From Diphasiastrum complanatum (taxonomy: Eukaryota; Streptophyta; Lycopodiopsida; Lycopodiales; Lycopodiaceae): a stretch of 64,000 bases of DNA. The notes under the pieces are model-generated. The model searched no databases. It was not told the origin of the DNA and worked only from the letters and a program-made list of their open reading frames with translations. The stretch lies in NCBI GenBank assembly GCA_029204225.1, contig CM055104.1, positions 44,530,120 through 44,594,119 of the forward strand, read 5' to 3'. Shown in pieces: positions 5,617 to 60,110 of the stretch; position 1 is the stretch's first letter; the number at the start of each line of letters is the position of its first letter. Position numbers and translations under genes: made by a program.

Positions 5617-6235
5617 TCATGTTATCATCTCCAATTTTCTCATCAAACTGAGGCTTCTCAAGTTCAAGTGACCAAGCCTCTTGTGCCACAACTCAGTTTG
5701 CAAAGGAACGGATGACACAAGTCCATGTTGCCCCTTGATTGTGGCATTCAACCTGTACAATTTTGTATTGGGCTCTCTTACTCCATTCGCAATAACTTTG
5801 AACTTTTGGTTCGCATCCTTTACAAAGCAACGATCATGGGCGAATTCTACTTTCAACTTTTGATCAGTAATGACTCCAACAGAAAGTAGATTTTTCTTCA
5901 AACCTGGTACGTAAAGTACCTCCCTGATCATCCTGCTTTTGCCGTCAGGCAGTTGGATTGAAACTGTGTCTATCCCCTTGATCATGCACACTTCACCATT
6001 TGCTTGTGAAACAGATGTTCCATTATCCAATGCCTTCAAACTACTAAACCAGTTCTTGTTACCTGTCATGTGTCTTGTGGCTCCTGAGTCAATATACCAT
6101 GCTTGATCATCTTGATTAGATGACAATGCAGATATGAAGATGCTAGAGTCTTCAATCTCACCTTCATCGACAAGGTTGCTTGCTTGTTTTGGTTTTCCCT
6201 TGTCTTGTTCCGCCAGAAATTTGTGACATTCACTC
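5617..6235 (-). pseudogene. copia protease and GAG-pre-integrase region, nested element
   Basis: WYIDSGATRHMTG gives the aspartic protease active-site D-S-G. LRE..YVPGLKKNLLSVG and ELWHKRLGHLNLRSL follow; these are the usual conserved blocks before copia integrase. An in-frame TGA at 5617-5619 separates this block from the integrase in the same frame. The reading overlaps the frame-shifted tail of the gag frame at 6066-6240. Confidence 0.9.
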
Positions 6236-6995
6236 TTCTAGTGCCCTTTTTACCACAATGGAAGCACTTGCCTTTCTTCTTAGTTTTGCTGGAAGATCCC
6301 TCATCCACCTGAGACTTGGAAAATTGTTGTTTAGTCTTCTTCTTGCCCTTGCCCTTGCCTTGTTTTTGGCGTGTCGCAAGTGCCTGATCATCACTATTTT
6401 GACGTCTGGCTTTCACCATTTCTCGTCGTTGCTCTTCCTGCATCAAGATTCCTGTGAGCTCGTCAAAGGTTGGCAATCTTTCTCTTGATGCTATTCTGCT
6501 CACAAACATCTGATAGGGTTCTTCAATGCTGCATAATGCATTATGCACCAGCTCCACATCACGTATGTGTTCTCCAATAGAATGCAGTTCATCTCTCATT
6601 GTCTTGATTCTGGTCATGTACGTCTGAATGTGCTCTCCTTGCTCCATGCGGGCACTATTCAACTTTGACTTCAAAAACATGATTCTTGACGGATTTGACA
6701 TCTCAAACTGTTCCTTTAGCACATCCCATGCCGGTCTAGGTGTAATAGCATCACAAATGTGGGTAATGATGTGATCCTTCACTGACAAGTTAATGAAGGT
6801 CAAAGCTTTCCTCATCTTTTTGTCGAACACTTTGATGTCTGCTTCATTTGGCGGCCTTCTCTCATCACCTGTGACGACTTCCCACACATCTTTCTCCATC
6901 AGTATGTTTTTAATTTTGAATTTCCACACTGCATAGTTAGAAATCCCGTCCAATTTGCTACTTTCACTCAAAATGGACTCTCCCATGTTTGTCAT
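6230..6995 (-). pseudogene. copia gag, nested element
   Basis: Read leftwards from ATG at 6995, it has the gag (UBN2-type) pattern: LDGISNYAVWKFKI, then DVWEVV, W..L...FE, and LPTFDELTGILMQEE. A lysine-rich tail leads to the start of a CCHC knuckle (CFHCGKKG). The knuckle is broken by a frameshift near 6240; its second half (the Cys) is in the protease frame. Gag forms the particle and binds RNA. Confidence 0.9.
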
Positions 6996-8294
6996 CGCAA
7001 AACTGCTTAAAACTTCTGCCTTAGGCTAAGAACAGTATGTCGAGGCCAATAGTGATGTCAAAAGTTGAAAATAATGACCTGCACTTTTTGTCTTACCAGG
7101 CCACTCGTCGCTTTTCCACCAATTTGAAAGCCAAATCGGTATCGCCTTCCAAAATGCACTCAGTCGTCAATTCCCAACAACGTGCCCAGTGGAATGGTGA
7201 AACTACTTCTGGCGTACTCCGAACACTTTCTCCGCTGCAATCGCTCTGTTTTGATGTACTGTACTTGTAGGGACAGTCCGGGTGCCCTTCGTTTGGAGGT
7301 TATAGCCTTTCGTTTGGGTCAAAACGGGCAAAGGACCCAAAAATAGGGACTTTTCTAGCTTTTGAATTGTTTCTTCACTTTGAAGAAACTTCACTCTTCA
7401 CTTGTGAAGGGACCCAGCTCAACTTTCAGTATAAAAATTTTTAATGAAGTTGAAGGCCAAAATACACTTCAATTCTTCAGGACCCTATTTAAAGCTCATC
7501 CAATGGCTGAACCAAATCTTGTGGTTCAAATTTCTCTCCCATCACAAATTCTGGACTGTTGATTCACTTGACACCTCATCTAAAGGTTCAAAGTACATCT
7601 GGGCATCAAACCAAACTCCTACATATGCTAAGAACTTCGGTACACTGAGTTCTTCATCGCGTTGGGTGCGCGAACTGCCCGCGACTTCCCTACCTGCGGC
7701 CGCGCCTCCCTTCTCTCAAAAAGATCAGATCAAGCTCTCCTGTGGATCGTTTTGAGCACGATCTGAGGCCTGGAGCAGGGTCGCCCTACTAAATCCATGA
7801 CTATAGCATGTTCAGTAAGGAAATTCCGTGGAGAAATGGTGATTTTAGCTCAACTTGACAAAGTGGCTTTTTCACCTTTTTACCGCAAATCTGCTAGGTT
7901 AACTGTCTGGAGACAAATCTCTGACATAAACCTCAGAATCTCTCCATGGCTGATTGACAGTGTGATTAGCTTCCTTCTGTCCTTACGGCATCCAAAACGG
8001 TGCAGAAACAGCGAAGAAATCACCAGTTATGTATAAAAACTGTAACCCCAAGTCCGGTTTCAATTTGCAGCTAGCTTCAAAATTGTCAAATTTTCACCAA
8101 ATTTTTCCCTGTCTGATGTTATGCACAGGCTAATAATCCCTCTGCTGAGCTTAGCAAGCCTGTATAAATTAGAAACCATGCACCAGTGCTTCTCTTTCCA
8201 TCTTCAACCCGCCGTAATACCCCGAACTCTCAGAAGACAGTTCTCCCGAAGCTCTCTTCAACGGCGACACTGTACTGTGTACACTCCCTGTACG
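6996..8294 (-). other. Long untranslated leader of nested copia
   Basis: About 1.3 kb lies between primer site and gag ATG, longer than most copia leaders. No coding pattern is convincing. A GC-rich patch with a NotI-like GCGGCCGC sits near 7697. Confidence 0.6.
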
Positions 8295-12478: not shown

Positions 12479-13570
12479 CATGGTTAGATATAAAAAAAGG
12501 ACACAAAAAAAATTTGCAGAAAAAAAGACAAAAAAAATTGCAAAAGAAAGGACAAAAAAACATTTGCAACAAAAAGAAAATTGATAGTCAGAGTATCAGT
12601 TTGGAGCGCAATATTATTAACAAAAAAAAGGAGTTGAAGTTCTGCGTTCGAACGTGATATTGGAGATATCGCGGTATCGGTCTCGAGCGCGGGGGTGTTG
12701 GCGAGTACTAGGAGACTGTTGGACGCGCTTGAGATCGATATTCAACTGTAAAATCTGAAAATTTGAGAGAAAAAGTCAAAAATCCGGGGGGGTAGTTATA
12801 AAATGTTTTTCACACGTGTGAAAAACTAACATGGAACACGTGGCGTTATTTCAGTAGTCCACGTGGCAGGTCGTACAGTAATTATGACTCATTGATGAGG
12901 GTCACGTGGGGATTTGCCACGTGCTCAAATCAAATTTTGCCACGTGTCATTCCACACGTGACAATTGTCACATCAATCATTTTCTGTATAGAGGTATATT
13001 TTAAACCAATCAAAAAACTACATGAATCAATTTTGATTTCATTCTTTTTGAGCTTGATATTGATTCCCAGCACAATTCTCAACCTCAGTAGCCTGTATTG
13101 GTACCTCTGCGCTTGAAATCGATACTACTTTTTTGGATATCTCTCTCAAGTACGTGTTTTCATTATAATTTTCTTTGGCCAATGCACCAGTGCTCCAAAC
13201 TGATACGAGATGCATTTTTGATGCGCTTGAGATCAATATTGAGAGAAAACAAAACTTAAAATTTGCAATCATAGATGGATTTTTTGGAACATGTGACATC
13301 ATGTCAATGGTCCACGTGTCTATCCGTAAACAATATAATGACTCATTGATGATGGCACGTGGGCATTGACATGTGTACGAATCCGATTGGACTACATGTC
13401 ATTCCACACGTGTGAACTGTCACATCAATCATTAACTGAACGGACGAAAATGATTAGCGAATCAAAAAGTGACACGTGTTAGATTCCACACGTGTGAATT
13501 TTTTTTCTAAATTTCTCATTTTTGGTGTGGATTTTCATGCAAATTTTCTGATTTCAACGCCTAATATCGA
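12479..13570. repeat. Diverged direct repeats rich in CACGTG, upstream of H3-like pseudogene
   Basis: About 12725-12990 and 13219-13450 are imperfect direct repeats. Each holds GCGCTTGAGATC, a TGACTCATTGATGA block, CATTCCACACGTG and TCACATCAATCATT. Together they carry about eight CACGTG words. Such G-boxes bind bZIP/bHLH factors in plants, but this may equally be repeat DNA. From the viewpoint of the minus-strand H3-like gene this lies upstream. An A-rich stretch lies at 12489-12580. Confidence 0.6.
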
Positions 13571-14294
13571 ATATCGATTTTAATTTAGGTCCAGTCCATT
13601 ACCTACTTGGAATGGAGATTCACAAAGATCGCGTGAGCAAAAGGATCACCATAAGCCAGCAATCCTACTTAATTAATGTACTTCAAAGATATGGCATGGA
13701 GGATTGCAAGCCCATAAACACTCCTATGGATCCAAGATGCAAGCTATCCAAATACATGTGCCCCAGAACAAAGGTTGATCAGCAAAAAATGTGCAAGTAC
13801 CCTTATCAGTCTATCATAGGTTCTCTCATGTACTCTATGATTTGCACACGACCTGATCTAGCATATGCTATAAGCACGTTGTCACAATTCATGTCCAATC
13901 CATGCCTACAACATTGGAAAGCTCTACAAAGAGTTCTAAAGTACATTGAAGCCTCAAAGCACTATGCCTTGAGTTACAACGGAAATACAAAAGCTGCACA
14001 CTCTTTGATTACCTATTCTGATTCAGATTGGGCAGGAGACGTAGATATCAGAAAATCCACCTCTAGCTACATTTGCTTTCTTGTAGGAGGACCCATTTCA
14101 TGGAATAGCAGGAAACAAAAATGCATTTCATTATCCTTTACAAAATTAGAATATGTCGCAGCTACGTTAGCAATGAAGGAGATTTTATGGCTTAGAAGAC
14201 TACTACAGGATCTGAGATTTCCACAAATTGGTCCAACTATACTCCAGTGTGACAATCATAGTTGTATAGCTCTGTCGTTGAACTGACAAACTCA
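13571..14294 (+). pseudogene. copia RT C-terminus and RNase H, old element (plus-strand half)
   Basis: It begins abruptly at LGPVHYLLGMEIHKDR and continues QQSYLINVLQRYGM, CKPINTPMDP, YQSIIGSLMY, TRPDLAYAI, YSDSDWAGDVDIRKSTSSY and LQCDNHSCIALSLN. It is interrupted at 14299 by the gypsy insertion and resumes at 20228. The start coincides, to within about eight residues, with where the minus-strand RT at 2290 stops, so the two may be halves of one element. A TGA follows LSLN. Confidence 0.9.
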
Positions 14295-15034: not shown

Positions 15035-15764
15035 ATTTTGGCATTTTAGGGTTAGTTCGGGATTGATTTTGCTTGATTTGAGTGGATTGGCTTGTTTAAA
15101 ATCTAATCTGATTGATAAATAGGAAAAGCTATTCAGATCACCAATCTTAAAATCCATTTGAATCTGAGATATCAGAGAAAATAACAAAAATTGGTCAAAT
15201 CTGCCACATTTGGTCAAATAAGAGACAAAAAACATTCATAGTAAAATACTATTTTTTGAGTCCGACAAAGATTCTTTTTTATCAGATCACAAAAATTTTT
15301 AAATTTTACCCTCGCTAGACTATAGAAACTATAATTTCTTGTGTCAGAAACCTTTGTCCGATTTTCCATAGTTGTATTTGTGTCAAATCCTTCACCTAAG
15401 AGGTTGGCGAAGGTTATTTCTCTAGAAATTGTCAAAAAGTATTCAGAGAGTTTTTTTTTTCCAAAATAGCACTGTTGAACCTTCGCCGAGACACCCTTTG
15501 CCTAGTGAACCTTCGCCAGTCCTAATTTTAGTTTCTGATTTTCCAGATCAAGTCTCTGTGAAAATTTGGATCAAATTTGATATATTTTGATTTGGATTCT
15601 GAGAGATTTATCATTTTTGAGAAGTATCAATTGATCGAATTTCAAAAAGTTTTTCATCATATAGAATCAGATTCTTGAAAAGTCGAATAGATCTAGTAGA
15701 TCTAATTTGCGATAGGTTTTTAAAAAATCTAGATCCAATCTCGTTATCTATTTGATCTAAATTT
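15035..15764 (+). other. Leader of nested gypsy element
   Basis: Untranslated DNA between LTR and gag. No standard primer site is recognisable at 15035 onward (TTTGGCATTTTAGGG is a weak candidate). Confidence 0.5.
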
Positions 15765-16778
15765 GTGAAGATGGCTGCCCCTGGAGCTGCTCCAGGAGGT
15801 GCTCCACAGGAAGTCAATCCAATTATTGCTAGAAGAGCACCCCGATTGGATCTACCCAAATATAATGGATTAACAAATCCAGTTAGATTTCTTCAGATCT
15901 ATGCTGAATCCTGTGAAGTCTATGGTGAGATTTATCCTCAAGATAAACTTAAGCTGTTTCCTATGGCCTTAACAGACGCAACACAAGATTGGTACTATAA
16001 TCAAGATGAAACTGAACGTACAGATTGGGAGGCTATTAAGCGAGCCCTGATCACACGGTTCAGACCACAAAAGTTTATGGAAGACCCTTTTCTACTTTTA
16101 AGTAAAATTAAAATGGGAAAGCGGGAAATGGTTCGAGATTATATTGAATGGGTGAAACGTCTTAGATTTGAATGTGAACCTAAGCTGATTAATAAAAATG
16201 CCATGATTATGTGGTTTTTGTTAGGTCTACCTAAACGGATCATACGTGAGTTGAAACGCCATAATGAGTATGCACTCTTGCAAAATGCTATGGACGATGC
16301 AATTTGGGAGGAGGATGAAGATTCAGATGAGGAGCCAAATATCAGTATATTGCCTTATACAGCAGGGCAGACTACTACGACATCCACCACTATTGCATCG
16401 ACGAATGTCGACGCTACTATAGAAATGATGTTCACTGAGTTCGAGAAACTCGGGAAGAGCCAGCATAAACAGATGGAAAAGTTGCAATTGCAATTTGATG
16501 AGAAGATCAAAGCATTGGAAAATTTCCATAGGGAAGCAAACAAGGAACCTGAAAATCTTGCAAAGACTTTTCTTACCAGAAAAAATGTTTGGTGTTCTAT
16601 TTGTATAGGAAATTACACAGTGAACGAGTGTCCTCAATTGAAAAAACGAATGAAAATCAGTGTTTGCCATTTGTGTAATTCACCTGATCATGAGACTGCT
16701 TTTTGCAGCTTCAACTCTCGGATAAATTCAACAATGGTATGTCTAGATGGGATATCGAGAACGACAGTATGGAGGTAA
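15765..16778 (+). pseudogene. gypsy gag with CCHC knuckle
   Basis: A 337-codon frame holds a retrotransposon gag domain: PKYNGLTNPVRFLQIY, then KLKLFPMALTDATQDWY, AIKRALITRFRPQ, MVRDYIEWVKRLRFEC and FLLGLPKRIIREL. An acidic hinge and a CCHC knuckle follow (CHLCNSPDHETAFC, perfect spacing); a preceding CSIC..NEC unit lacks the His. The Ala/Pro/Gly start is MAAPGAAPGGAP. A homologous gag is at 41392. The frame ends early and the capsid reading is picked up again at 16870. Confidence 0.88.
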
Positions 16779-24330: not shown

Positions 24331-24921
24331 GATGAGCGCGTGAGAATATATACTATGGTTGTCAAATGCTTTATATGCGCGTTGATTAGCTATCGGGTGA
24401 AAATCTGGCCTTTGAAATTTTCCAAAATTATAATTATTGGATATAAAAAAGATCTTATATTTAAAGCTTAACATTGTCAATTTCAGCATTAAATGATAGA
24501 AGTGTGATTAATTGTAGATGTGACCATACTTTATTTGAAATTAGTTCTGGTTAATTCGATATGGATTAATCATTTTGATGACTGATGGATATATAGATTG
24601 ATTTGATTGACAAGCCTCTGAGTAATCATCATCTTAATATGAGCCACCACGTTTGCAAACCACCACGTTTGCAATCATTTCTGATTTTCTCTATATATAT
24701 TGATCGACGACACTAAATTTTTTTTGCTTATAGTTATTTGTATCCATGCGATATCGATTCAGCGCATTCGAAAACAACTTCCTTCAATCCGTTCCTACTC
24801 GCTCGCACCCATTCGCTACCAGCTAACGGAATAGTTTAGCTTAGGTATCGCTTCGACGCGTCCGACCTGAGGTCTATCCTGAAATCAACATTATCACGCG
24901 CTGATCAACTACTACACAGTA
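24331..24921. other. Upstream region of H3-like gene
   Basis: No coding pattern. A TATATATA stretch at 24693-24700, about 220 bp before the H3-like ATG, is a possible TATA box. An imperfect tandem of CCACCACGTTTGCAA lies near 24645-24675. The last 150 bp are less AT-rich, with several CpG-containing words. Confidence 0.35.
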
Positions 24922-25798
24922 ATGGCTCGGACCAAGCAGACAACACAAGGGCATTCAGGTGGAATACCAACTTCAGGCGTGGGTCAGGGAAATCCACAAC
25001 CACCACCTCGTCCACCACCACCTCCTCCTAGGCCAAGGGGCAGAAGAAGAGACTCATCCTGGCTCAAGGATATTCGAAAGCTTCAGAAGACAAATAATCT
25101 TCTGATTTCAAAATCTCACATACAGAGGTCCATCGGACAGGTGACAAGAAGTCTATCTACAGATGTGAGATGGACGGTAACGGCAATTGAGGCGCTGCAC
25201 ACAACATATGAAGATTTCCAGGTGAAATGTTTTTCTAATACTGTTGTTGCAGCTGTCCATGCCAAGAGGGTGACCATCATGTCCAAGGATTTCAACATTG
25301 TGTTCAGGCTTTGGGACACATATGACAAATTTGTAGAATACTTTAGATCTGTTTCAAATAAGAGGAGGTCTCTTGACCCTCCATCTAAAGCGAGGATTTT
25401 TCCAAGCCATATCCTCCGAATACTATTATTTCTTCTAGGCATTCTCCTCCTAATTCTCCTCCTAAGTCTCCTTCTCCTTCCACTCCATCTTTAACTTCTC
25501 CTACTAAATCTTCCTCTCCTAACCAATCTCCACCTCCTAAATCTCCTCCTTCTCCTAAACCCGTAAATATTAGTTCCCCTCCTCCTGTTGTTAGAAGCAA
25601 TTTAGATGATTTTATTAGTGTAAAGGTAGAATCAATTTTGAATGACAATTCTTTATGTGGCTTATCAGTGTTACTTCCGTCACCCCCTGCATTTTCCTTT
25701 GTAAATAGTTCTCAATATGTACAGTATAACCAATTGTTAGCATGGTACACTAATTTTTTGAGTCAAAATGCATGTTTTTGTATTAAATTTTTTTTGTG
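24922..25798 (+). CDS. Strongly diverged histone H3-like protein with Pro/Ser-rich extension
   Basis: ATG at 24922 gives MARTKQT, identical to the start of canonical H3. A non-H3 tail follows: Gly/Gln-rich, then a run of prolines, then PRGRRR. From about residue 50 the histone fold is clear: WLKDIRKLQKTNNLLI aligns to LREIRKYQKSTELLI, then HIQRSIGQV, TDVRWTVTAIEALHTTYEDF, AAVHAKRVTIMSKDF and RLWD. VHAKRVTIM is nearly diagnostic for H3. Trp after Arg in TDVRW and the EDF triplet are seen in centromeric H3, but loop 1 has normal H3 length. The reading continues about 30 residues past the H3 end. The original frame then becomes a hydrophobic run to 25494, whereas another frame stays open to 25798 as a Pro/Ser-rich region plus a short tail (LDDFISVKVESIL and following). 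An intron, frameshift or assembly error must lie between about 25375 and 25490. Nucleosome packing is the family role; this protein's role is unknown. Confidence 0.72.
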
Positions 25799-26867: not shown

Positions 26868-27965
26868 ATGGAGTCCACAGAGCTCATCCCAGGATTATAA
26901 GAAGAAATTGCATGGACGTGCTTTGTCAAAGTATCTTATGAATGGCATCCTCAGATGCAGGCAGTCTGCCGCAGATGGAAGGCAGTTGTGAGAAGCAAGG
27001 AGTTCTATGAAGCTCGCAAGAGGGCAGGCTCTTCAAGACAGTGTGTGTGCATGGTTCAAGCAGTGCCTCCATCCTCCACAGCCCGCATCGCTAAAGTTGC
27101 TGGAACATCCACACCGCCTTTAAATATCAGCATCTATGACTTGCATCAACGTTCCTGGATGAGACTCTGGCCTGTGCCTGAATTCTCACAAGCAGGTGCG
27201 CCTCTCTTCAGCCAGTGCGTCTACAGTAATGGCAAGCTCATCTTGCTGGGAGGATGGAACCCCACGAGTTATGCAGCTATAAGATCCGTGTATATCTTCG
27301 ATTTCTTCAGTAGGAAATGGTGCCGTGGATCAGACATGCTGAGCACGCGCTCCTTCTTCGCATGCGGTACAGTCGATGGCCTCGTCTTTGTGGCTGGTGG
27401 GCATGATGACAAGAAGGATGCTCTGGCTACAGCAGAGATGTACTCCGTAGAGGATGATAGCTGGAGAGAGCTTCCTAAGATGAGCGAGGAGCGCGATGAG
27501 TGTGGGGGATTTGAGCTGAATGGAAAATTTTACGTGGTGAGCGGCTATCACACCCAAACTCAGGGACAGTTTGTAAAGAGTGGGGAGGTGTTTGATCCAA
27601 GGGTGGGAAATTGGAATAGGATTGAGAATGTATGGATGAAAGCTAGTTGCAGCGCCACAATAACAGCTGTTGCTTGTGGCCAGCTCTATGATTTCAGTGG
27701 ACAAGAAGTGCTGCGCTACGATGCTGATCTCAATTCGTGGATGGTGGTGGACGCCATTCCAGAAGGCAGAACCGTGGCAGCTTGCACTACCTCCGCCTCG
27801 GATTGCATCGTAGTGGCCACTACATCTTGCAACGTTGATATGATATTCAATTACAAGCTATTCCTCTACAAACCAAGCCTTGTCAAGGATTCTCTGTGGA
27901 CTAAAATTGAGAGCGAGGAGGATTTCTCGTGTTTGATTCAAGGCTTGTGCACAGTTGAGCTTTGA
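26868..27965 (+). pseudogene. F-box/kelch gene, KMD type, with early stop codon
   Basis: Intronless and co-linear with the intact 44076-45179 gene; about 85% of residues agree by eye. ATG at 26868 starts MESTELIPGL, but codon 11 (26898-26900) is TAA where the duplicate has Pro. The remaining 355 codons are open in the same frame: EEIAWTCFVKVSYEW completes the F-box, followed by kelch repeats GKLILLGGWNP, LVFVAGGHDD, GKFYVVSGYHT and a degenerate fourth. Re-initiation at the Met at 26955 would give 336 residues lacking most of the F-box and so probably unable to bind SKP1. In Arabidopsis the family delivers PAL enzymes and type-B response regulators to SCF ubiquitin ligase. The otherwise open frame suggests recent loss or an assembly error. 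Confidence 0.85.
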
Positions 27966-42723: not shown

Positions 42724-44075
42724 GCTTCTTGGTCACTCACCAAATGTGTGAGCACACTCCTAAAGATTGGTACTATTGCTCCATTATATCATGGGACCTA
42801 TCTACCTCTATGTTGTACATAACACGACAGGCACATCCACATCTCGAACAGCTCCAACACTTCCCATTAAGGTGCATAGTGTGATGTGAACTCTTATTCC
42901 ATGTGATGTTGCAAGGGGAGGTCGATGTGATGCCATGTTAAAAATGGATGGTTGAATTAATAGGTTAAATGCTTGAAGCATCCTAGCCACCTCTAAAATG
43001 TGTGGGCACTTCTAGTTATATCAAGGGACACTCAATGGTCAATAGTTCTTTAAGTGTGGTCCATTCTCTTGTTTAAGGGACAACAAGGCAATTAGCCTTC
43101 ACAAAGCAACATTTACTCAATGCACCTCCAACAAAGAGATGCCAAATTCCTATGTAAAGAGTTTTTGGCATCAAATATCTCATGCACAATGCACACCCAT
43201 GGCAAGTTAATCCCTCCATCATCTTTCACAATAATTGAGGGTAGTTGGATAAGATGGGTTGAGTTGGGATTTGACCCTTACGCACGGAACCAAGCTACTC
43301 GATAAGTCAGCTTCTAGGTTTGCTGTTGCTCATAATCATCATCGTGTAGCTTATTTTTAAGCTTCATGGAAGCATTTATACTTTATAACATTGTAGCCCA
43401 AATGTAGGTTTTCCTATGGATTCATGCACGAATTATGGCCCACAAAGCTCAAATGCTTTATCCGTTGAAATAATGAAATAGTTTTCTATTCAATGGTGCA
43501 TAGGTCGTGATGATTGTACTATCGTGTAGGCCAATTCATAGCATTAGATAATTCGGAATCTACAAACGTGTGTATGTCAATTGATAATCATATGCGGGAA
43601 CAGTGAATGGATTAGTTTGATGCTAGATTTTCCATAAATCTTTTGGCAGCTTAGAGTTGGACGCAAAAGCAGGCAACTGTGGAAGGACTTAGTCACTTAT
43701 TCCAAGTGTTGTCAGATTTTGGGTTGACGGGTTCTGCAAGAGGCTCCTACATGCTATGCATCCAAGGAGTTTTTGTTTGTTGAATGAGATCTTATAGGAT
43801 TATAACGGATTTTGATTCTTGTAGCATCAGATGGATGAACGTTTGTTTTGGACGGATACATTATTTGCTCATAGAGGCAGAAGATTGCTGAATTGGGGCG
43901 CATATTGTTGAGGTTCTGCATGCGCTCACACACTCACGGTAGGTGGAATCGACGCATTGATCTGACATAATTACTTGGCAGGCTCAGAACTGGTGAGTGT
44001 CGTTTCATGATAATTGGTGTTTTAATCATCAAAAGGCATAAGTGCATGAGCACAGGTGATGGTGGGTAGAGTGGT
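42724..44075 (+). other. Upstream region of intact KMD-type gene
   Basis: No coding pattern. From about 42840 it is similar to 25870-26867, the DNA upstream of the other copy. It is the likely promoter region, but no TATA box is obvious close to the ATG. Confidence 0.55.
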
Positions 44076-45179
44076 ATGGAGCCCACGGCGCTGATCCCAG
44101 GATTACCCGAAGAAATAGCATGGACGTGCTTTGTCCGAGTATCTTATGAATGGTATCCTCACATGCAGGTAGTATGCCGCAGATGGAAGGCGGTTCTGAG
44201 GAGCGAGGAGTTCCATAAAGCTCGTAAGAGGGCAGGATCTTCAAGGCACTGCGTGTGCATGGTTCAAGCACTGCCTCCATCCTCCACAGCCCCCATCGCC
44301 AAAGCGGCTGAAACATCCATTCCGCCTATAATGGGTATCAGCGTCTACGACTTGCACCAACGTTCCTGGATGAAATTGTGTCCTGTGCCCAGACTCTCAC
44401 AAGGTGCGCCTCTTTTCAGCCGGTGCGTCTGCAGTAATGGTAAGCTCATCTTGCTGGGAGGATGGAATCCCACAAGCTATGCAACTATAAGATCGGTGTA
44501 TATCTTCGATTTCTATAGCAGGAAATGGTGCCGTGGATCAGATATGCTAACCTCCCGCTCCTTCTTCGCATGCAGTGCTGTCGATGGCCACGTCTTTGTG
44601 GCTGGTGGGCACGACGGAAACAAGGATGCTATGGCGACAGCCGAGGTCTACTCCGTAGAGGATGATAGGTGGAGAGAGCTTCCTAGGATGAGCGAGGAGC
44701 GAGATGAGTGCGGGGGATTTGAGCTGAATGGAAAATTCTACGTGGTGAGTGGCTATCACACCCAAACTCAGGGACAGTTTGTGCAGAGTGGGGAGGTGTA
44801 CGATCCAAAGGTGGGGAATTGGAAGAGGATAGAGAATGTATGGATGAAAGCTACTTGCAGCGCTGCTATAACAGCCGTTGCTTGTGGCAAGCTCCATGAT
44901 TTCAATGGACAAGAAGTGCTGTGCTACAACGCTGATTTGAATTCGTGGGTGGTGGTGGATGCCATTCCGGAAGGCAGACCCGTGGCAGCTTGCAGTACCA
45001 CCCCGGCCTCGGATTGCATCGTAGTGGCCACTGCATCCTGCAGCGGTCATTTGAAATGCAAATACAAGTTATTCCTGTACAAACCAAGCCTTGTCAATGA
45101 TTCTGTGTGGACTAAAATAGAGAGCGAGGAGGAGGATTTCTCGGGGTTGATTCAATCCTTGTGCATGGTTGAGCTTTGA
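44076..45179 (+). CDS. F-box/kelch-repeat protein, KMD type, intact
   Basis: An intronless 367-codon frame. Residues about 5-45 are an F-box (LIPGLPEEIAWTCFVRVSYE followed by VVCRRWKAVL), which binds SKP1 in an SCF ubiquitin ligase. Kelch repeats start near residues 122 (GKLILLGGWNP), 171 (GHVFVAGGHDG) and 219 (GKFYVVSGYHT), with a weak fourth near 271; they form the substrate-binding propeller. RSFFAC, the ERDEC motif and QGQF resemble Arabidopsis At1g80440-like (KISS ME DEADLY) proteins. Those target phenylalanine ammonia-lyase and type-B response regulators for degradation, linking phenylpropanoid output and cytokinin response. Which substrate this one has cannot be read here. Acidic C-terminus (IESEEEDF). 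It is the only fully intact host-type gene in the window, and a sister copy with a nonsense codon lies 17 kb upstream. Confidence 0.93.
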   Translation: MEPTALIPGLPEEIAWTCFVRVSYEWYPHMQVVCRRWKAVLRSEEFHKARKRAGSSRHCVCMVQALPPSSTAPIAKAAETSIPPIMGISVYDLHQRSWMKLCPVPRLSQGAPLFSRCVCSNGKLILLGGWNPTSYATIRSVYIFDFYSRKWCRGSDMLTSRSFFACSAVDGHVFVAGGHDGNKDAMATAEVYSVEDDRWRELPRMSEERDECGGFELNGKFYVVSGYHTQTQGQFVQSGEVYDPKVGNWKRIENVWMKATCSAAITAVACGKLHDFNGQEVLCYNADLNSWVVVDAIPEGRPVAACSTTPASDCIVVATASCSGHLKCKYKLFLYKPSLVNDSVWTKIESEEEDFSGLIQSLCMVEL

Positions 45180-52053: not shown

Positions 52054-52099
52054 GACGGTGCTAAATAGTCCTAGGAGTGGTTTTTTAGTTTGTATTTTT

Positions 52100-52751
52100 T
52101 GTGAGAGATTTCAACTAGTTTAGTCTAGTTTAGTCACATTTTGGTAAATTGTCAATAAGAGGCCAAAACTCATTTTATACTTAAAGATAAACTTTTTGAA
52201 GTTATATTAGTTTAAAATACATTCAATAAACACTTTTGGAAAGTGTGGGAAAGTTGGTAGTCAAGTTTGAGAGAGATTCAAATTTGAACTTTGGGTACAT
52301 TGAATCTAGACCCAAAAATAGTAGGGTTTACATTTTGGAGGGAAAGCCAAGTGGCCAAATAGGGTTTGAAAACTCTATAAAAGGATGTAACTCGTGGAGA
52401 GACACATCTTCTCTCTTCTCTATCTCATTTCATGCTTATACATGGTTCTCTTGGGTTCTACTATCCATTGGTGCACTATCTTGGTGATTGCTTGCAATTC
52501 TATGTGTAGAATGATCTATATTTGCAATTTGTGGATCCACAAGTGTGAAATACCGTAGCTTGCTGGTTTTGTATGGAAAGCAATAGTACATAATCATTTC
52601 ATTCAAGTTTGATCAAGTTCTATTAGTGTTTGCATCTCAAATTATGTGTAGATGCTGATTTTTCTACATTGGTGAAATTGGTAGTGTATTTCTCTTTCTA
52701 ACCAAAGATCATTCAAGTAGATTGGATCTTAAGGATCTGAAATCTTTCACA
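52100..52751 (+). repeat. 5' LTR of RT-less copia (652 bp)
   Basis: Ends TGTGAGAGATTT / AAATCTTTCACA. A TATA box TATAAAAG is at 52376-52383. Confidence 0.95.
52376..52383 (+). promoter_or_regulatory. LTR TATA box
   Basis: TATAAAAG, conserved at 57183-57190 in the other LTR; expected to drive element transcription. Confidence 0.75.
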
Positions 52752-52763
52752 TGGTATCAGAAC
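52752..52763 (+). promoter_or_regulatory. Primer binding site (initiator-Met tRNA), RT-less copia
   Basis: TGGTATCAGAAC directly after the LTR; the last two bases differ from the common GC. Confidence 0.92.
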
Positions 52764-53351
52764 TTGTGTTTCAACTTATGAAAGAGGAAATCATATCTAT
52801 CAATGATTTGGTGAAGATATCAAGTCTAGAGCATGCTAGAAAGGATTCTACACCAAAATCGGATTTTTTGCTTTTGTAGATTGGATCTTTTGTAGATCAA
52901 AACACTAAATAGGTCAATATACTTGTTCAATTCCATTTTTTGAATTCACATGCTGGATTTGGCCAGTTTTTGGATCATTGGTTCAGCCTAAGTGGTGGCT
53001 TATAGATTGCATATCAAATTTTCAGCATTTGCATGTAGATTTGAAATAGTCAATTTTTTGTGATTTTGTCAAAACCCTAATTTTGATTGGATCTCTAGAT
53101 AGTGAGGTTGCTGGACTTCATTTGAGTGTATTTCAATCTTAGGAAGTGGCAAAAGTCATTAGATTGAGGATAGATCATAGGTTGATCAAGATTCCATGAT
53201 TCTATGTGTTGATTTGCTTGGATAAGTGCTAGAAGAGAATTTGTGAGATAGTTTCAAATCTTGGTGATTTCTTTTGAAAGCGTTTGTTGTTGTTCAAAGG
53301 AGTGCTTTGTGCATTGAAACAGGTTGAAAGAGAAGATCAGGTCATTGCTAC

Positions 53352-54146
53352 ATGGCAACCTCAATTGGAGTCATGTTGGAAGCCAATGATAGGCTTACCT
53401 CAAGTAACTATTCATTATGGAAAGTCAGGATGGAGTCACTTCTTGAGATGAATGATGTTTTGGATATTGTTGTAGGTTTGGAGGAGAGACCAGCAACACA
53501 ACAAGATCAATTGAGGTATGACAAGAGGGCCAAGAAGGCTCTACACATGATAAAGATGAATGTTACCAATGAACTTCTCAAGGAAGTTGGTAAGTGCACA
53601 TCGTCTTTGAAAGCTTGGAATTCATTGAAGAAGCTTTATGAATCCAAGTCTACTTCTAGAGTGTTGACTCTAAGAAGGCAAATCTTTTCTTGTTTGCAAA
53701 AGAATGAAGAAAGTCCAAGTACTTTTGTTTTGAGAATGAAAGCATTGAATGATGAGTTAGCTTGCATACATGAAAGCATTAAGGAAGGAGAGCTTATTCA
53801 AGTGATTCTTAATGGCTTGTTGGATGCTCATGCTAACATTGTTCAAAGTATTGCTATTCAAAAGACTTTGCCAAGTTTGATGGATCTTCAAGAGATCTTG
53901 ATCAATGAGGAATATAGGCTTCAAGCAAGAGGTGGATCTACATCGACACTTCAAGAGGATGCTATGTTCACAAAGGGCAAATTCAAGGGAAAAACCAAAA
54001 GCAAGTGATCTAAAGGGCAAGATCAAGTGGATGCTTCTTCAAGTGGCAAAAAGAAGAATAGATCAAAGCTCAAGTGCTTCTATTGTGGCATCAAAGGACA
54101 CTTTGCAAGTGAGTGCTACAAGAAGAAGAGAGATCAAGGAGACAAG
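53352..54146 (+). pseudogene. copia gag with CCHC knuckle (one stop codon)
   Basis: MATSIGVMLEANDRLTSSNY, then SLWKVRMESLLEMND, FSCLQKNEESPSTFVLRMKA, LPSLMDLQEILINEEYRL. A TGA at 54006-54008 lies in frame just before the knuckle CFYCGIKGHFASEC (perfect spacing). CGA to TGA decay is likely; a programmed stop is less likely because it falls before rather than after the knuckle. Confidence 0.93.
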
Positions 54147-55835
54147 CAAAGTAATCTTACTCTTGATGAGGATGGTTTGGATGTGCAAGATGCAAATGAT
54201 GATGCTTTTGTGATGTCTTCATGTATGCTTGCTAATGATGGACATCTAGATCCTTGGTGGATTGATAGTGGAGCAAGTTCACACATGACTTTTCACAAAG
54301 AGTACTTCACTTCTTTGTTGGCATATGGAGATGACAAGAGGGTGATCTACACGGCCAATGATGGTGAGTGTGCAATCAAAGGGATTGGCACGATTCCTAT
54401 TTCTCTCTCTACAAATAGGAATGTTCATTTGGAGGATGTCTTGTTTATTCCATCTATTACCAAGAATTTTCTTAGTGTGAGTCAAATGCTAAGTAAGGGC
54501 CTCAAGGTGGAGTTTGATGGAGATGCTTGTTTGATCAAAAGGAAGGATGTCTTGATTGGAAAAGGTAAAAGACAAGGGAAGTAGATCAAACTTGATGCTT
54601 GTGTTATTGCTAACCAAGTTGGATGTGTTGCAAAGGAGCAAATTTCTATTCAAGAGGTTTGGCACAAAAGGATGGAACACCTCAACTTCAAGTCATTGGA
54701 GGTAATGGCAAGGAAGAAGGTTGTGATTGGTCTTCCAAGTTCCTTAAGTAATGACAAGCATGTTTGTGAGTCTTGTGCTTTGTCTAATTCACATAGACTA
54801 CCTTATACTAGATCTATTTCTAGATCTACAAAGCCTTTTCAACTTGTACATTCGGATATTCATGGATTTACTACAATTAGCAATAGTGGAGCTAAGATGT
54901 ATGTAACATTCATTGATGATTCTAGTAGATTTTGTTGGATCTATCTACTAAAGAGCAAGGATGAAGTGTCTGATGTCTTTGTCAAGTTCAAGAATGCAAG
55001 GGAGAACCAATTCTCCACAAAGATCAAGTGCTTGAGAGGTGACAATGGTGGTGAGTACATATCTAACAAGTTCAAGGCTTGTTGTGATGAGCATGGGATC
55101 AAGAGGGAGTATACAACATCAAGGACCCCACAACAAAATGGATTGGCTGAAAGGAAGAATAGAACTTTATGTGAAAGTGCTAAAGCTATGAGGTTAAGTG
55201 CTAATCTTGACAAACCATTTTGGGATCAAGCTTTGTTGTGTGCCAATTTCTTGTGCAATAGGTGGCCGAGTGCTATTTTGGATGGAAGGACACCTTTTGA
55301 GATGCTATTCAAGAGGAGGCCGAGTGTCAACTTTCTAAGAACCTTTGGATGCACATGCTATGTCAACATTACTCTTGATGATAGGACCAAGGAGGATCCA
55401 TCTTCAAGAAGAGGTATTTTTGTTGGATATAATGAGGTGAGTAAAGCCTACAAGGTTTACATTCCTTCTACTAACAAAGTGACTGTTGGTAGAGATGTCA
55501 TTTTTGATGAGGGAAACATTCCAAAGGTGTCTTCAAGCATGATTGATGGTAAAATAGATGGATCTAACATTCTTGATGTTGATGAGAAGGATCCTACTTT
55601 GGATGGTGGTGATGATGGACCTTCATCAAGTCAAAAGCCAAGGAGAACATCAAGAGAAAGACAAGTACCTTCAAGGCTCACATATGATCAAAAGGGTAAG
55701 CAAGTAGTTTCTGGAAATTACGTTGCTTTCCTAACCTCTTTGGATGATCCTACAAGTGTAGATCAAGCAAGGAAAGAAGAGGAGTGGATCCAAGCAATGG
55801 ATCTCGAGTATCGATCTCTTATGAAGAGTGGAACA
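54147..55835 (+). pseudogene. copia protease and integrase (one stop codon), RT-less element
   Basis: Same frame as gag. Protease: WWIDSGASSHMTFH, then VLFIPSITKNFLSVSQM. A TAG at 54582-54584 follows KGKRQGK. Then come VWHKRMEHLNFKSL and CESCALSNSHR, then the integrase triad LVHSDIHG, LRGDNGGEYIS and NGLAERKNRTLCES. The C-terminal LRTFGCTCYV, GIFVGYNEVSKAYKVYIP and the Ser/Asp-rich linker follow. It reaches EEEWIQAMDLEYRSLMKSGT, the usual RT leader, and there leaves the copia pattern. Confidence 0.95.
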
Positions 55836-56912
55836 TCTTTTGGAGGATCTTCTTGTGTACATGGAGCTATGCAAGTGGATGGATGTTATCTTGCTATAAA
55901 ATCAAGTAATGGATCTGGAAAACAAAGTTTGTTCAATGACTTTGATGGTCAAGTTGAAGATCAAGAGGTTGATCTCAAAGCACTTCAACTAATCAAAAGG
56001 GAAGGTGACAATTTGGAGCTAGTCAAGAGCATCAAAGGAGAGGTAATTGGCAAAGGTGTTATGGATCTGTTTTTACAGCATATTGAAGACTCAAGTAAAG
56101 TCAAAGGAGCAGCAAGGAAGTGTTGTTCAAGTTTACTTTACTTGTTCCATCTCATGTTTGAGCTATTTCATGTGGATGTGTGCAAATTGTCAAGATATGG
56201 ACAAACTAGCTACATTGTCTTGCAATATCTTATTGTTGGAGTTGTACTAGCATTCTTGGCTGGTTTTGCTGATGGAAATGAAGTTATTGGAGGTTCATTA
56301 TGTCACTCATCCATGATCAAGCTCTCAAGTGTTGAGCTACTTGGTGCCAATACTTGGAGATTGTCAATTTTTGGTGAATTCATGGTCATTTTCTTGTGTC
56401 AAGTAGATCTTGAAGATGGACTAGTGCAACCTACTTTGTTTATGGAGTCATGTGGTGCTAGATTTGCATCATTAATGTACTCACCTACTCATGGATTTCC
56501 AAGGTTTGATGGTTTCTTGTGGCAAGATGGAGATGGAGGCTCATTCATGGAGTTTTATGGTGGAGACATATCAAGAAAGGACAAAGTTGGAGGAGACAAG
56601 CAAGCAAATGGTCATCACTCACATTTATTGTTTGGTTGCTGTAATTTTCCAGAGAGTTTAAAGTTTGAAACATGGAAGAATCATTTCATTCACATTCTAT
56701 TTGGTTCTTCATGTTCTAGTTATATCTTGATGTGTAAAATTGATGTAAGAAATAGTGAAGCATCCAATTTGGACACTACTCTCTATATCAATTATGAAAG
56801 ATACTTTAGAACCTTAGAAAGAAGATCTATACTGAGGATGGAGATCATTCTAAAGTTGGATCAAAGTTCTATTGTTCAAACTATGCCAAAACTAGTTGAA
56901 GAGGGAGTGTGA
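55836..56912 (+). CDS. Unrelated open sequence replacing RT/RNase H, fused in frame to integrase
   Basis: About 358 codons are open from the integrase linker to the TGA formed by the 3' LTR. It contains no RT motif (no LYGLKQ, no YVDD), no RNase H motif and no ILTKP block. Parts are charged (DNLELVKSIKGEVIGKGVMD), one stretch is hydrophobic (LQYLIVGVVLAFLAGFADG, a possible membrane segment), and it ends PKLVEEGV as in the RNase H-bearing relative at 49269. The last 230 bp are shared with the short element at 47057-47290. I recognise no domain. It may be non-coding filler that happens to be open, or a captured gene. Confidence 0.6.
   Translation, partial: SFGGSSCVHGAMQVDGCYLAIKSSNGSGKQSLFNDFDGQVEDQEVDLKALQLIKREGDNLELVKSIKGEVIGKGVMDLFLQHIEDSSKVKGAARKCCSSLLYLFHLMFELFHVDVCKLSRYGQTSYIVLQYLIVGVVLAFLAGFADGNEVIGGSLCHSSMIKLSSVELLGANTWRLSIFGEFMVIFLCQVDLEDGLVQPTLFMESCGARFASLMYSPTHGFPRFDGFLWQDGDGGSFMEFYGGDISRKDKVGGDKQANGHHSHLLFGCCNFPESLKFETWKNHFIHILFGSSCSSYILMCKIDVRNSEASNLDTTLYINYERYFRTLERRSILRMEIILKLDQSSIVQTMPKLVEEGV
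56898..56907 (+). promoter_or_regulatory. Polypurine tract, RT-less copia
   Basis: GAAGAGGGAG directly before the 3' LTR; it also encodes the last codons EEG of the open frame. Confidence 0.9.
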
Positions 56913-57558
56913 GAGATTTCAACTAGTTTAGACTAGTTTAGTCACATTTTGGTAAATTGTTAATAAGAGGCCAAAACTCATTTTAGACTTAGAGATAAAC
57001 TTTTGAAGTTATATTAGTTTAAAATACATTCAATAAACACTTTTGGAAAGTGTGGGAAAGTTGGTAGTCAAGTTTGAGAGAGATTCAAATTTGAACTTTG
57101 GGTACATTGAATCTAGACCCAAAAATAGTAGAGTTTAGATTTTGGAGAGAAAGCCAAGTGGCCAAATAGGGTTTGAAAACTCTATAAAAGGATGTAACTC
57201 GTGGAGAGACACGTCTTCTCTCTTCTCTATCTCATTTCATGCTTATACATGGTTCTCTTGGGTTCTACTATCCATTGGTGCACTATCTTGGTGATTGCTT
57301 GCAACTCTATGTGTAAAATGATCTATATTTGCTATTTTTGGATCCACACGTGTGAAATACAGTAGCTTGCCGGTTTTGTACGGAAAGCAACAGTACATAA
57401 TCATTTCATTCAAGTTTAATCAAGTTCTATTAGTGTTTGCATCTCAAATTGTGTGTAGATGCTGATTTTTCTACATTGGTGAAATTAGTAGTGTATTTCT
57501 CTTTCTAACCAAAGATCATTCAAGTAAATTGGATCTTAAGGATCTGAAATCTTTCACA
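56908..57558 (+). repeat. 3' LTR of RT-less copia (651 bp)
   Basis: Direct copy of 52100-52751, about 21 substitutions and one deleted T by eye; flanked by TTTTT. Confidence 0.95.
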
Positions 57559-57563
57559 TTTTT

Positions 57564-60110
57564 CTCCTATCACGTCATCATGACACATCACCATCCTCTC
57601 CACACAGCTACTGCATATCATAGTCATTTTCTATTTTCTTCCTCACACTTTCTTCTTGTATTTTTTATGCCTTCTTTCATTACTTATGATTACTATCTTT
57701 GTGATCAAGCATTCTATTACAACCTGTTGCAATCTGCGGAGCTTTCGTCAAATATTCGACAAAATGGCTTCTGGATCCAGCTCTTCTATTATCTGAAAAG
57801 CATGCGTAGGAATATGGCTGACATCAATCCAGTCTCTTCTGGATCAATGCAGATTGGGAAGCTTGAAAGTGGAACCTTCAGTCATCCTTTCTGAAGTCAG
57901 TACTGAGTTCGTGAATTCCATCCACTCAGTATCTGATGTGGATTTTAAAGTTCATGTGCAAGAAAAGTTCTTTATTGTCTCTGAAGAAATGTTCTTCACG
58001 GCTTTGGGATTACCACTGGATGGTAAAATTATTTCTACAAACAGAGATGCAATGGATGAAGACACCTATTTTCTGAGCAACTGTTTCGTACCCACCAAGG
58101 GCTACAAAATTTCTATGATCAAGGATGCCACATTCAAAATGTTTTGTAAATACGCCAACAAGTTATCTTTTTGACAGATGTGGATGCTACCATTTCGGTG
58201 CAAAATTTTGGGTATTTATTGGACAATCCTGTATGCTTTGGCATCATTGTATAAAGGCATTTTTTGAGGTGGATCAAACATGAAAATTTTTCGGCAATAG
58301 GAGCACATGTTTCGCATTTGTGTGAGCATTTTGGAGTCTTAACCAACTAGGAGAAAAGTTTGTTGATGGAAAGACTGTTGCCCCCAACACCAGTCGACCT
58401 ATCTAGTCTTATAACCACACCTGCCACAACCACCACAGTAGCACTTGTGCCACCAATCCAAGTAGCAGCTATAATTGCTATGGACGTTGATGGTGCCACT
58501 GCCATTGCCATGGATACGGATGGACCTACTGTTGCTGAATCAACAAAGCCAGCCTCTGCTTCAACCTCACAGAAGCAGAAGAACTCAAGTGCCTCGGAGG
58601 AAGACGAAACTCCATCCGACACTTCAGACAAGGCTCGAGCAACTACAGTAGGCGACACTGGGATAGCTGATGAAGATGATGATGAACCTGACAACCAGCC
58701 CCAGTGGTTCACTTCCATGACTAACAAAGCCAAGAATTTTTTTGTTGATATATATGAATTTGATAGATATAATCAGAGGAACATCATGGACCTGATAGAA
58801 GTAGAGCAAATGTTTCAAGACTCTCTCAAAGAGTCTTATGAGAAGATTGATTTGCTCGAATTAGACAACACCAAGCTGATCGACGAAAATCATTTCCTTG
58901 AAACACAGCTTCATTTCGCAATCAAGGAAGCTGATTCTTTGAAGGAAATCAATAAGGCAATTGAGGCCAAGTCTGTCAATTATCAGACTACTATTGATTC
59001 TTTAAAACAACAAGTGCTGGATGCTTATAAACACAATGTCGCTCTCCAGAAACATTTGCAAGAGGAGCAAGCGACATGAATAAAGGCAGAAACTATGCTT
59101 GCTCTATGCAACAATGCAGGTTCTATCATGATAGATCTCTCGAAACTAAACTAGCTCCAAGGCCAGATGCTAGAAAATTTTTGAGTAGAGTTCTTGCAAC
59201 TGCTCGAAGATGTGAAGGCGCTAGTCGAAGAAGAGTTTGCGGAGTTGAAGGAGCTATCTATTGAAGCCACCCAAACTTGCAATGGTCCAAACTCCCATGA
59301 TGAATAACTATAGGCCCTACTGAGAATTGATGATCTGATGCAGCAACTTAGTCCATTCTTGTCTGTTCGGGAGTTGTTGACCATCTAAAATACTTGGAGG
59401 CAATAGCGAAGGTTGACAAGCTCAAACAAGAGTTGTCTGATCTCAAGCAGCAGCTGGAAGATCAAAAGTTAGCTGCCGAGTTACAAACTCAAGAACAGCA
59501 GCTACTTAGACAAAGCCACGTCGAAACCAATCAAAGGTATGTGTATCCATTTGCTGATCGATTTTGGAAGTGGTGTCGACAAGCTTTTAACATTGAATTA
59601 CAATGGCGTGTGGATTATATGATGCTACCAGGCGCAGTAGGCATCGCCTTCGATGACTGGAAGACACCATGGGAAAAGGATGACCTTCTCTGGTTATGGG
59701 CCCAGTTATCTATCGAGCAGAAAGGATGTCTCTGTTGGGGCATAATTTAGGGAAAATTCACAATTGCGCCTTTCAAATCAGGTGAGTTGTACATAGGCCC
59801 GTGTGCTATGTATGCCTCAGAATACATTCGTATTAAAGAATATCAATTTTTACGGAATGAAGACAATAAGAAACAATTTTGGAAGCGGAAATCGCAATTC
59901 CAATTGTACAAACCAAAAGATGTTGCGAACATAGGCGCTTTTGATGAAGCTGGACTGCTCGTCAATGTAAATATGGCGTATCCAAAACTTTTTAGTCTTT
60001 ACGTGGATTGGGAGCGAAATCTTGTTGACTATTTTGCAGAAATTAAACACAATCTGCAAGATCAAAGAAAGTCAAGTCATTTCAAGAACTTCTGTACATA
60101 TTTGTTCTAG
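57564..60110 (+). pseudogene. Coiled-coil ORF region in the Athila/Tat-type element, broken
   Basis: ATG near 57762 (MASGSSSSII, then TGA). Frames continue: 57854-58174 with VHVQEKFFIVSEEMFFTALG, LPLDGKI and DAMDEDTYFLSNCFVPTKGY; 58360-59079 with an Ala/Thr-rich then acidic stretch and a long coiled coil (LLELDNTKLIDENHFLETQL and following); 59394-59750 with a second coiled coil and YPFADRFWKWCRQAF, WRVDYMMLPGAVGIAFDDWK; 59787-60110 with a basic/aromatic tail. Stops and shifts separate them, but style and order suggest one gene. By position it is the first ORF of the interrupted gypsy element. Tat/Ogre elements carry an extra ORF1 of unknown function, to which this may correspond. No enzyme motif. 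Confidence 0.45.

What the first reader, a model, noticed from the sequence alone, without database searches (positions are those of the whole stretch)
55836..56912. copia-type element whose RT and RNase H are replaced by unrelated sequence open in frame with integrase
The element has paired LTRs (about 3% apart), TTTTT duplications, primer site and purine tract, so it transposed in this form. From gag to the 3' LTR the whole of 53352-56912 is one frame with only two stops (TGA and TAG). The last 358 codons are open yet contain no RT or RNase H motif. An open frame this long in AT-rich DNA is unlikely by chance, so the replaced part may be translated. It would be a gag-integrase-unknown polyprotein mobilised in trans.
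Basis: partly seen in the sequence, partly recalled or inferred. Interest (0 to 1): 0.85.

Follow-up and report, generated by a model that had tools for sequence, protein, structure and literature searches.

The report
Jumping gene with a swapped-in tail
A plant copia retrotransposon that lacks the gene for its copying enzyme carries a long, still-readable tail shared with many other such copies, and its end repeats show it was made by copying two different RNAs packed together, so it must move with borrowed enzymes.

Summary
The element at 52100-57558 has paired LTRs, TTTTT duplications, primer site and purine tract; it encodes gag, protease and integrase, then 358 open codons without RT or RNase H. 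The segment is not unique: in the same genome exact 20-mers occur 773 times for the integrase-segment junction, 1206 times for a second RT-less family (A) that carries the segment, and 1269 times for the RT start of the autonomous family (D) whose gag-PR-IN is about 98% identical. Both window LTRs are clean two-part mosaics, A-type to 57211 and D-type from 57229, 29-47 bases past the TATA motif: the scar of a first strand transfer between two co-packaged RNAs. Transposition in trans is well supported. The segment shows weak or no amino-acid constraint (dN/dS about 0.5-1.5; 0.15-0.3 for gag/PR/IN between families), yet open lineages accumulated changes without in-frame stops, and 6 of 8 transmitted indels keep frame. 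My reading: a non-autonomous hybrid with a mobile 3' module kept translatable but nearly free in sequence, perhaps to protect the RNA. No captured host gene was found; the segment's ultimate origin is unresolved.

The parts
52095..52099 (.). target-site duplication TTTTT, left
   Evidence: read by eye
52100..52751 (+). 5' LTR; U3 A-type to 52404, R-U5 D-type from 52422
52752..52761 (+). primer-binding site TGGTATCAGA
   Evidence: read by eye; initiator tRNA-Met type is recalled
53352..54008 (+). gag, D-type, ended by TGA 54006-54008
   Evidence: Pfam; 98% to L046
54009..54584 (+). zinc knuckle and protease region, D-type, ended by TAG 54582-54584
54585..55835 (+). integrase (pre-integrase, rve, SH3 domains) to just past the start of RT (LMKSGT), D-type
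   Evidence: Pfam; 98% to L046
55836..56080 (+). first part of the RT-replacing segment, B-type
   Evidence: diagnostic sites
56081..56907 (+). rest of the segment, A-type (from 56109 by diagnostic sites), to the purine tract
56898..56907 (+). purine tract GAAGAGGGAG
   Evidence: read by eye
56908..57558 (+). 3' LTR; U3 A-type to 57211, D-type from 57229; TATA motif at 57182; the frame's stop TGA is at 56910-56912
57559..57563 (.). target-site duplication TTTTT, right
   Evidence: read by eye

Best explanation
The window element is a non-autonomous hybrid copia retrotransposon. Shown: its gag-PR-IN half is that of an autonomous-type family (D, with RT and RNase H); the RT-RNase H place is taken by a segment (seg) shared with a second, abundant RT-less family (A) and, at 74-76%, with a third (C); the IN-seg fusion (B) is itself amplified. 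Shown by its scar: this copy descends from a B RNA and an A RNA reverse-transcribed together. DNA begun at the 5' end of the B RNA (R-U5) jumped at the U3/R border to the 3' end of the A RNA, copied A's U3 and the 3' part of seg, and switched back to B near 56080-56109. Inferred: reverse transcriptase, at least, came in trans, most simply from D copies. Also inferred: seg is a 3' module that passes between families by such switching, and it is kept open in frame because the RNA does better when translated to its end (for example by escaping decay triggered by an early stop), while its amino acids drift almost freely.
For: Mosaic LTRs: 59 A-type then 56 D-type diagnostic sites in the 3' LTR, 59 then 55 (one neither) in the 5' LTR, none out of order, change at 57211/57229 with TATA at 57182. 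D copy L046 with RVT_2 E 1.2e-57 and 98% gag/PR/IN. 773, 1206 and 1269 exact 20-mers for the B junction, an A mark and the D RT start, reversed controls 0. Two A insertions, L034 and L040, with identical LTR pairs (0 of 654), their own target duplications and a 1203-aa frame in which Pfam sees only gag, zinc knuckle and protease region, so RT-less copies moved very recently. Segment dN/dS 1.12-1.24 between A and B; 85 fixed A/B differences without a stop, 5.0 expected, P 0.006; 128 A/C differences without a stop, 6.4 expected, 0 of 3000 simulations; 6 of 8 transmitted indels in frame against 8 of 29 singletons (P 0.03) and 0 of 16 non-coding between-family indels (P 0.0002).
Against: No RNA, protein or particle data. 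The frame-keeping evidence is modest within families: in position-sampled copies shared variants have 6 stops against 11.4 expected (P 0.06), and two transmitted indels (5 and 1 bases) break the frame. A/C dN/dS is 0.49-0.79, and 0.32 on 12 changes between two C copies, so weak protein constraint is possible. B copies keep about 590 bases of old RNase H sequence after the segment's stop, which fits an early-stop-decay model poorly. An Arabidopsis element without intact ORF has moved (PMC8704663, passages), so an open frame is not always needed. That D proteins act on A and B is inferred.
Confidence: 0.7

Rival explanations
1. The segment encodes a real, selected protein (captured host exon or accessory protein) that replaced RT and RNase H.
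For: Long open frame with coding-like base composition at codon positions; A/C dN/dS 0.49-0.79 and C/C 0.32 on 12 changes; frame kept in transmitted changes.
Against: dN/dS 1.1-1.5 among transmitted A and B changes; differences spread evenly over codon positions; in-frame 174-base deletion amplified (6 of 16 A, 2 of 14 B); no Pfam or PDB match; AlphaFold pLDDT 27.7, which with 10 similar sequences is weak evidence.
Confidence: 0.12
2. The segment is the far-decayed RT end and RNase H of an old copia lineage, kept open while the enzyme was lost (an origin compatible with the best explanation).
For: Family A upstream of it has a decayed RT (YDGD for YVDD; 0 of 500 shuffles as good) and a decayed integrase (1 of 500) in an open frame; the segment ends, like D's pol, in LVEEGV at the purine tract.
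Against: Segment against D RNase H aligns no better than shuffled sequence; the RT-like part of A lies before the integrase-tail motif, so the order is not that of a simply decayed pol.
Confidence: 0.25
3. The frame is open by inertia: all copies descend from recent open masters and nothing selects for openness.
For: Shared-variant stop deficit in position-sampled copies is only 6 against 11.4 (P 0.06); singletons are neutral.
Against: Stop-free A/B and A/C divergence; off-frame control not depleted for A/B (13 against 12.4; in the reverse direction 11 against 15.0, in-frame 1 against 5.9); transmitted indels mostly in frame.
Confidence: 0.2
4. A one-off genomic rearrangement or neutral filler.
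For: The window's only 99% copy is a duplicate of the same locus.
Against: Junction 20-mer 773 times; target duplication; LTR mosaic of reverse-transcription type.
Confidence: 0.02

Closest known systems
ONSEN recombinants in Arabidopsis (PMC5668417, passages)
   Same: LTRs recombined at the first template switch, within R, from pairs of co-packaged RNAs.
   Different: There members of one family recombine; here an RT-less family and a hybrid of an autonomous family, with replacement of RT-RNase H.
TR-GAG elements, e.g. AT5TE33540 of ATCOPIA63 (PMC8704663, abstract and passages)
   Same: Copia elements without RT that transposed, probably with help of an autonomous relative.
   Different: TR-GAGs have a single Gag ORF; B also encodes protease and integrase and a long open tail, A a 1203-aa frame.
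BARE-2 (seen only as a name and reference-list entry in PMC10552921; details recalled)
   Same: Non-autonomous partner living off an autonomous copia family.
   Different: BARE-2 lacks working gag and keeps pol; here gag is kept and RT is lost.
Autonomous/non-autonomous LTR swapping in soybean (Du et al. 2010; reference-list entry only; paper not held)
   Same: LTR exchange between autonomous and non-autonomous partners (by title and recall).
   Different: Not compared; text not seen.
Defective RNA virus genomes that keep an open frame (recalled, no call)
   Same: Deleted genomes in which end-to-end translation is favoured though the protein is useless.
   Different: Here a genomic retrotransposon; translation not shown.

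Membership tests
autonomous Ty1/copia element | gag, protease, integrase, RT, RNase H in one element | tested here: not met
   gag, PR, IN found; no RT or RNase H by Pfam
copia order and kinship | integrase placed before RT; copia-type gag and integrase domains | tested here: met
   Retrotran_gag_2, Pol_BBD, gag_pre-integrs, rve, SH3; relative L046 has IN then RVT_2
non-autonomous LTR retrotransposon | paired LTRs, PBS, PPT, target duplication, missing enzymes | tested here: met
TR-GAG | single ORF coding Gag only | tested here: not met
   integrase and protease regions present
BARE-2 type | gag defective, pol kept | tested here: not met
   gag recognised, RT absent; definition recalled
LARD | internal region without coding capacity | tested here: not met
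   definition recalled
template-switch recombinant (ONSEN-like) | LTR breakpoint at U3/R, same in both LTRs | tested here: met
   position of R inferred from the TATA motif, not measured
template-switch recombinant (ONSEN-like) | co-packaged RNAs or recombinant extrachromosomal DNA observed | not testable with these tools
   needs RNA or particle DNA

The most novel reading that the evidence does not exclude
The segment is coding sequence selected for being read, not for what it says: a translated, nearly sequence-indifferent tail that protects or licenses the RNA (for example against early-stop decay), spreading as a mobile 3' module onto the gag-PR-IN halves of different copia lineages by template switching.
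Probability: 0.33. Interest if true: 0.78.

Novelty: new variant of a known kind. Interest (0 to 1): 0.55.

Why it matters
It gives a readable two-parent scar of reverse transcription, ties three RT-less copia families to a shared 3' module, and makes a question testable: is a retrotransposon RNA selected to be translatable end to end even when most of its protein is useless? If so, an open frame in a transposon is not by itself evidence of a functional protein, and stop-codon surveillance would shape parasites' genomes.

Tried and rejected
Seg as RNase H by pairwise alignment: no better than shuffled sequence. AlphaFold model of seg: pLDDT 27.7, pTM 0.21, so no fold search was made. PDB (best E 0.14) and Pfam searches of seg: nothing significant. 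Stop counts in eight A copies fetched whole (0 stops in the A middle part and seg against 10.8 expected) were dropped as a constraint test, because I had picked those copies for open 3' frames; they were replaced by copies picked by position. Even those came from the part of the lists shown (16 of the first 100 of 1206, 14 of the first 100 of 773, contigs C1 and C2). Off-frame control: in A's middle part new stops were low in all three frames (in-frame 5 against 11.8, other frames 23 against 35.9), so that part is no clean test. Integrase of the window against four near relatives: dN/dS 0.84-2.25 on about 19-30 changes each, that is no constraint visible since the recent split; the low values for integrase come from the D/C comparison. 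A stretch upstream of L042, wanted for family C, was mostly N (L047). Paper searches on stop-decay or frame-keeping (listings only) gave nothing on the point. The host species was not determined.

Full report
Observation. The window holds a complete LTR element at 52100-57558 with TTTTT duplications, primer site and purine tract; its LTRs differ at 21 of 652 sites. One frame runs from gag to the 3' LTR with two stops, TGA 54006 and TAG 54582. Pfam finds gag, zinc knuckle, protease region, pre-integrase, integrase core and SH3 domain, and nothing in the last 358 codons. A Markov model expects 22.9 in-frame stops there; 0 of 500 simulations had none.

Relatives. The genome (G000, 1.74 Gb, unnamed) was searched with the segment: 40 places scored of 4708 first-look candidates. 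Of the 30 loci cut out, the window itself and near-identical pairs included, 21 have no stop in the segment's best frame. L002/L036 is a duplicate of the window locus (flanks 99%). Blastn of window parts against 11 loci fetched gave that duplicate; two hybrids with A-type LTRs around D-type parts (L037; L038, in which gag and most of the leader were not matched); and eight members of family A: LTR 83-88%, leader 78-79%, gag 82-86%, protease region 70-72%, no integrase match inside the element, but segment 94-95%. So the segment shares a younger history with A than the rest does. I had chosen the A copies for open 3' frames.

Family A. L034 and L040 have identical LTR pairs (0 of 654) and different target duplications, and each has a 1203-aa frame from gag into the LTR in which Pfam, at E up to 10, sees gag, zinc knuckle and protease region and nothing after about residue 392. 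Part of that stretch is a decayed RT (YMEQ, YGLK, YDGD for YVDD; score 57 against shuffled 29.2, sd 4.5, 0 of 500) and part a decayed integrase (1 of 500 shuffles as good). The RT-like part lies before the integrase-tail motif (KGKQV in most A copies printed, KGKHM in L040), a rearranged order.

Families D, B and C. L046 is a D copy with gag, protease, integrase, RT (RVT_2 E 1.2e-57) and RNase H, frameshifted in places, 98% to the window's gag, PR and IN. L042, L043 and L045 have D-type integrase sequence, then the segment (88-90% over the longest match), then about the last 570-590 bases of D's RT-RNase H region; L045 is open for 1110 aa, and Pfam finds in it gag, PR, IN and SH3 but no RT. 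The junction after LMKSGT is an exact 20-mer in the window and its duplicate, L004/L038 and L042 among the loci then held. In the genome that 20-mer occurs 773 times, an A mark 1206 times, the D RT start 1269 times; reversed controls 0. L089 belongs to a more distant family C: protease and integrase about 70% to A and D and the segment (74-76%) beginning 34 bases after the integrase match, with no room for RT; this copy's segment is interrupted by about 970 bases. A 26-mer from that border occurs 85 times with up to 2 mismatches, 2 of them exact. L088 shows the C segment without integrase beside it.

The scar. Ungapped sites that separate three A copies (L031, L032, L040) from two D/B copies (L042, L043) in the LTR were read on the window. 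In the 3' LTR the first 59 are A and the next 56 D, without exception; in the 5' LTR 59 A, then 55 D and one neither (with gap columns the same picture). The change lies between 57211 and 57229; the TATA motif is at 57182. In the segment, against L042 alone, B-type sites run to 56080 and A-type sites from 56109, with exceptions: A-type at 56005 and 56033, B-type at 56659, one site neither. This is what a first strand transfer from a B RNA to an A RNA and one switch back would leave; ONSEN recombinants show LTR recombination at that same step (PMC5668417, passages). The transcription start is inferred from the TATA motif.

Constraint between families. dN/dS: gag A/D 0.29-0.31, protease A/D 0.29, segment A/B 1.12-1.24, segment A/window 1.15. 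Integrase: 0.15-0.16 for L045 against the C copy, 0.23 for A's protease to pre-integrase part; but window integrase against four near relatives gives 0.84-2.25 on few changes. Of 85 fixed A/B segment differences 26/36/23 fall on codon positions 1/2/3 and none makes a stop (5.0 expected, P 0.006; reverse direction 5.35, P 0.004). Changing one site at a time (87 differences), in-frame new stops are 1 against 5.6 and the other two frames 13 against 12.4; in reverse 1 against 5.9 and 11 against 15.0. A against C copy L089: 128 differences, 38/45/45 by position, no stop, 6.4 expected, 0 of 3000 simulations; dN/dS 0.49-0.79 for A/C, 0.75-0.99 for B/C, 0.48-0.66 for window/C, 0.32 on 12 changes for C/C. 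The open stretches were chosen for this; that is fair for asking whether an open lineage exists, not for counting broken copies.

Constraint within families. Sixteen A and fourteen B copies were picked by position from the listed hits. Singletons behave as neutral, which calibrates the method: stops 18 against 17.8 and 12 against 12.0. Variants in two or more copies: A 5 against 7.4, B (with L042) 1 against 4.0, together P 0.06; dN/dS 1.17 and 1.50. In the 19 de-duplicated best-scoring A copies, in-frame stops in seg are 2 against 8.2 (singletons) and 1 against 3.3 (shared); the other two frames 25 against 21.6 and 13 against 11.3. In gag of 17 A copies shared variants have dN/dS 0.42 and no stop (1.4 expected), singletons 0.92 and 7 stops (6.4 expected). 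Distinct indels in two or more copies in A's middle part and seg: 9, 12, 3, 9, 9, 174, 5 and 1 bases, 6 of 8 in frame; left out were three seen only in pairs at about 100% (two of 1 base, one of 9) and the alignment end where B's segment stops. Singletons in the A sample: 8 of 29 in frame. Between-family indels in leader and LTR: 0 of 16 in frame. Fisher P 0.03 and 0.0002.

Reading. The element is a real, transposed, non-autonomous hybrid. Its gag-PR-IN comes from D, its segment end and U3 from A, and RT must have come from elsewhere, since Pfam sees none in the A and B copies tested. The segment is a 3' module found in three settings: behind D's integrase (B), behind C's integrase, and behind A's decayed pol. 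It is kept open in frame while its amino acids drift almost freely; the best mechanism I can offer is that the RNA gains from being translated to its end, for instance by escaping early-stop decay (recalled biology, untested). Against this: B carries leftover RNase H sequence after its stop, a 1-base indel ends B's segment out of frame, and an Arabidopsis element with no intact ORF moved (PMC8704663, passages). Weak protein constraint is not excluded. Host-gene and RNase H origins are both without support.

What is known. Recombination at the first template switch and transposition of non-autonomous copia elements are in print (PMC5668417 and PMC8704663, passages); classes of non-autonomous elements are named in PMC10552921 (passages); PMC3701649 was seen as abstract and outline only. 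In the searches (listings) I saw no copia family with gag, protease and integrase joined to a shared open tail in place of RT; the library lacks most subscription papers. On re-checking I lowered the novel-case odds slightly (0.35 to 0.33), because a recount gave 6 of 8, not 6 of 7, transmitted indels in frame.

Noticed in passing
window 3279-7025 (-): Another copia element in pieces: RVT_2 (E 2.7e-75) and Retrotran_gag_2.
   Followed up: no
window 13552-14286 and 15756-16778 (+): A weak RVT_2 end below its cut-off and a Retrotrans_gag match: further retrotransposon remains.
   Followed up: no
window 24883-25494 (+): 203-aa frame with a core histone match over residues 47-143 (E 1.4e-17).
   Followed up: no
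window 26901-27965 and 44070-45179 (+): Two kelch-repeat frames with FKB95-type matches, 17 kb apart, probably a duplicated F-box/kelch gene pair (the plant link is recalled).
   Followed up: no
window 57797-59079 (+): Directly downstream of the element, open frames with coiled-coil-like sequence and no Pfam match above cut-off; L088:1496-2812, beside a C segment, also codes coiled-coil-like protein.
   Followed up: partly
L040:2536-6144 (+): In family A a decayed RT-like stretch lies before the integrase-tail motif, a pol order that simple decay does not explain.
   Followed up: partly
L058, L060, L065, L066, L067, L072 (A); L075, L081 (B): The same 174-base in-frame deletion in the segment occurs in both A and B copies, so it was transmitted, perhaps by recombination.
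   Followed up: partly
G000:C13:44585955 and G000:C13:45447586: The window locus is present twice, 0.86 Mb apart, with 99% identical flanks: recent segmental or assembly duplication.
   Followed up: partly
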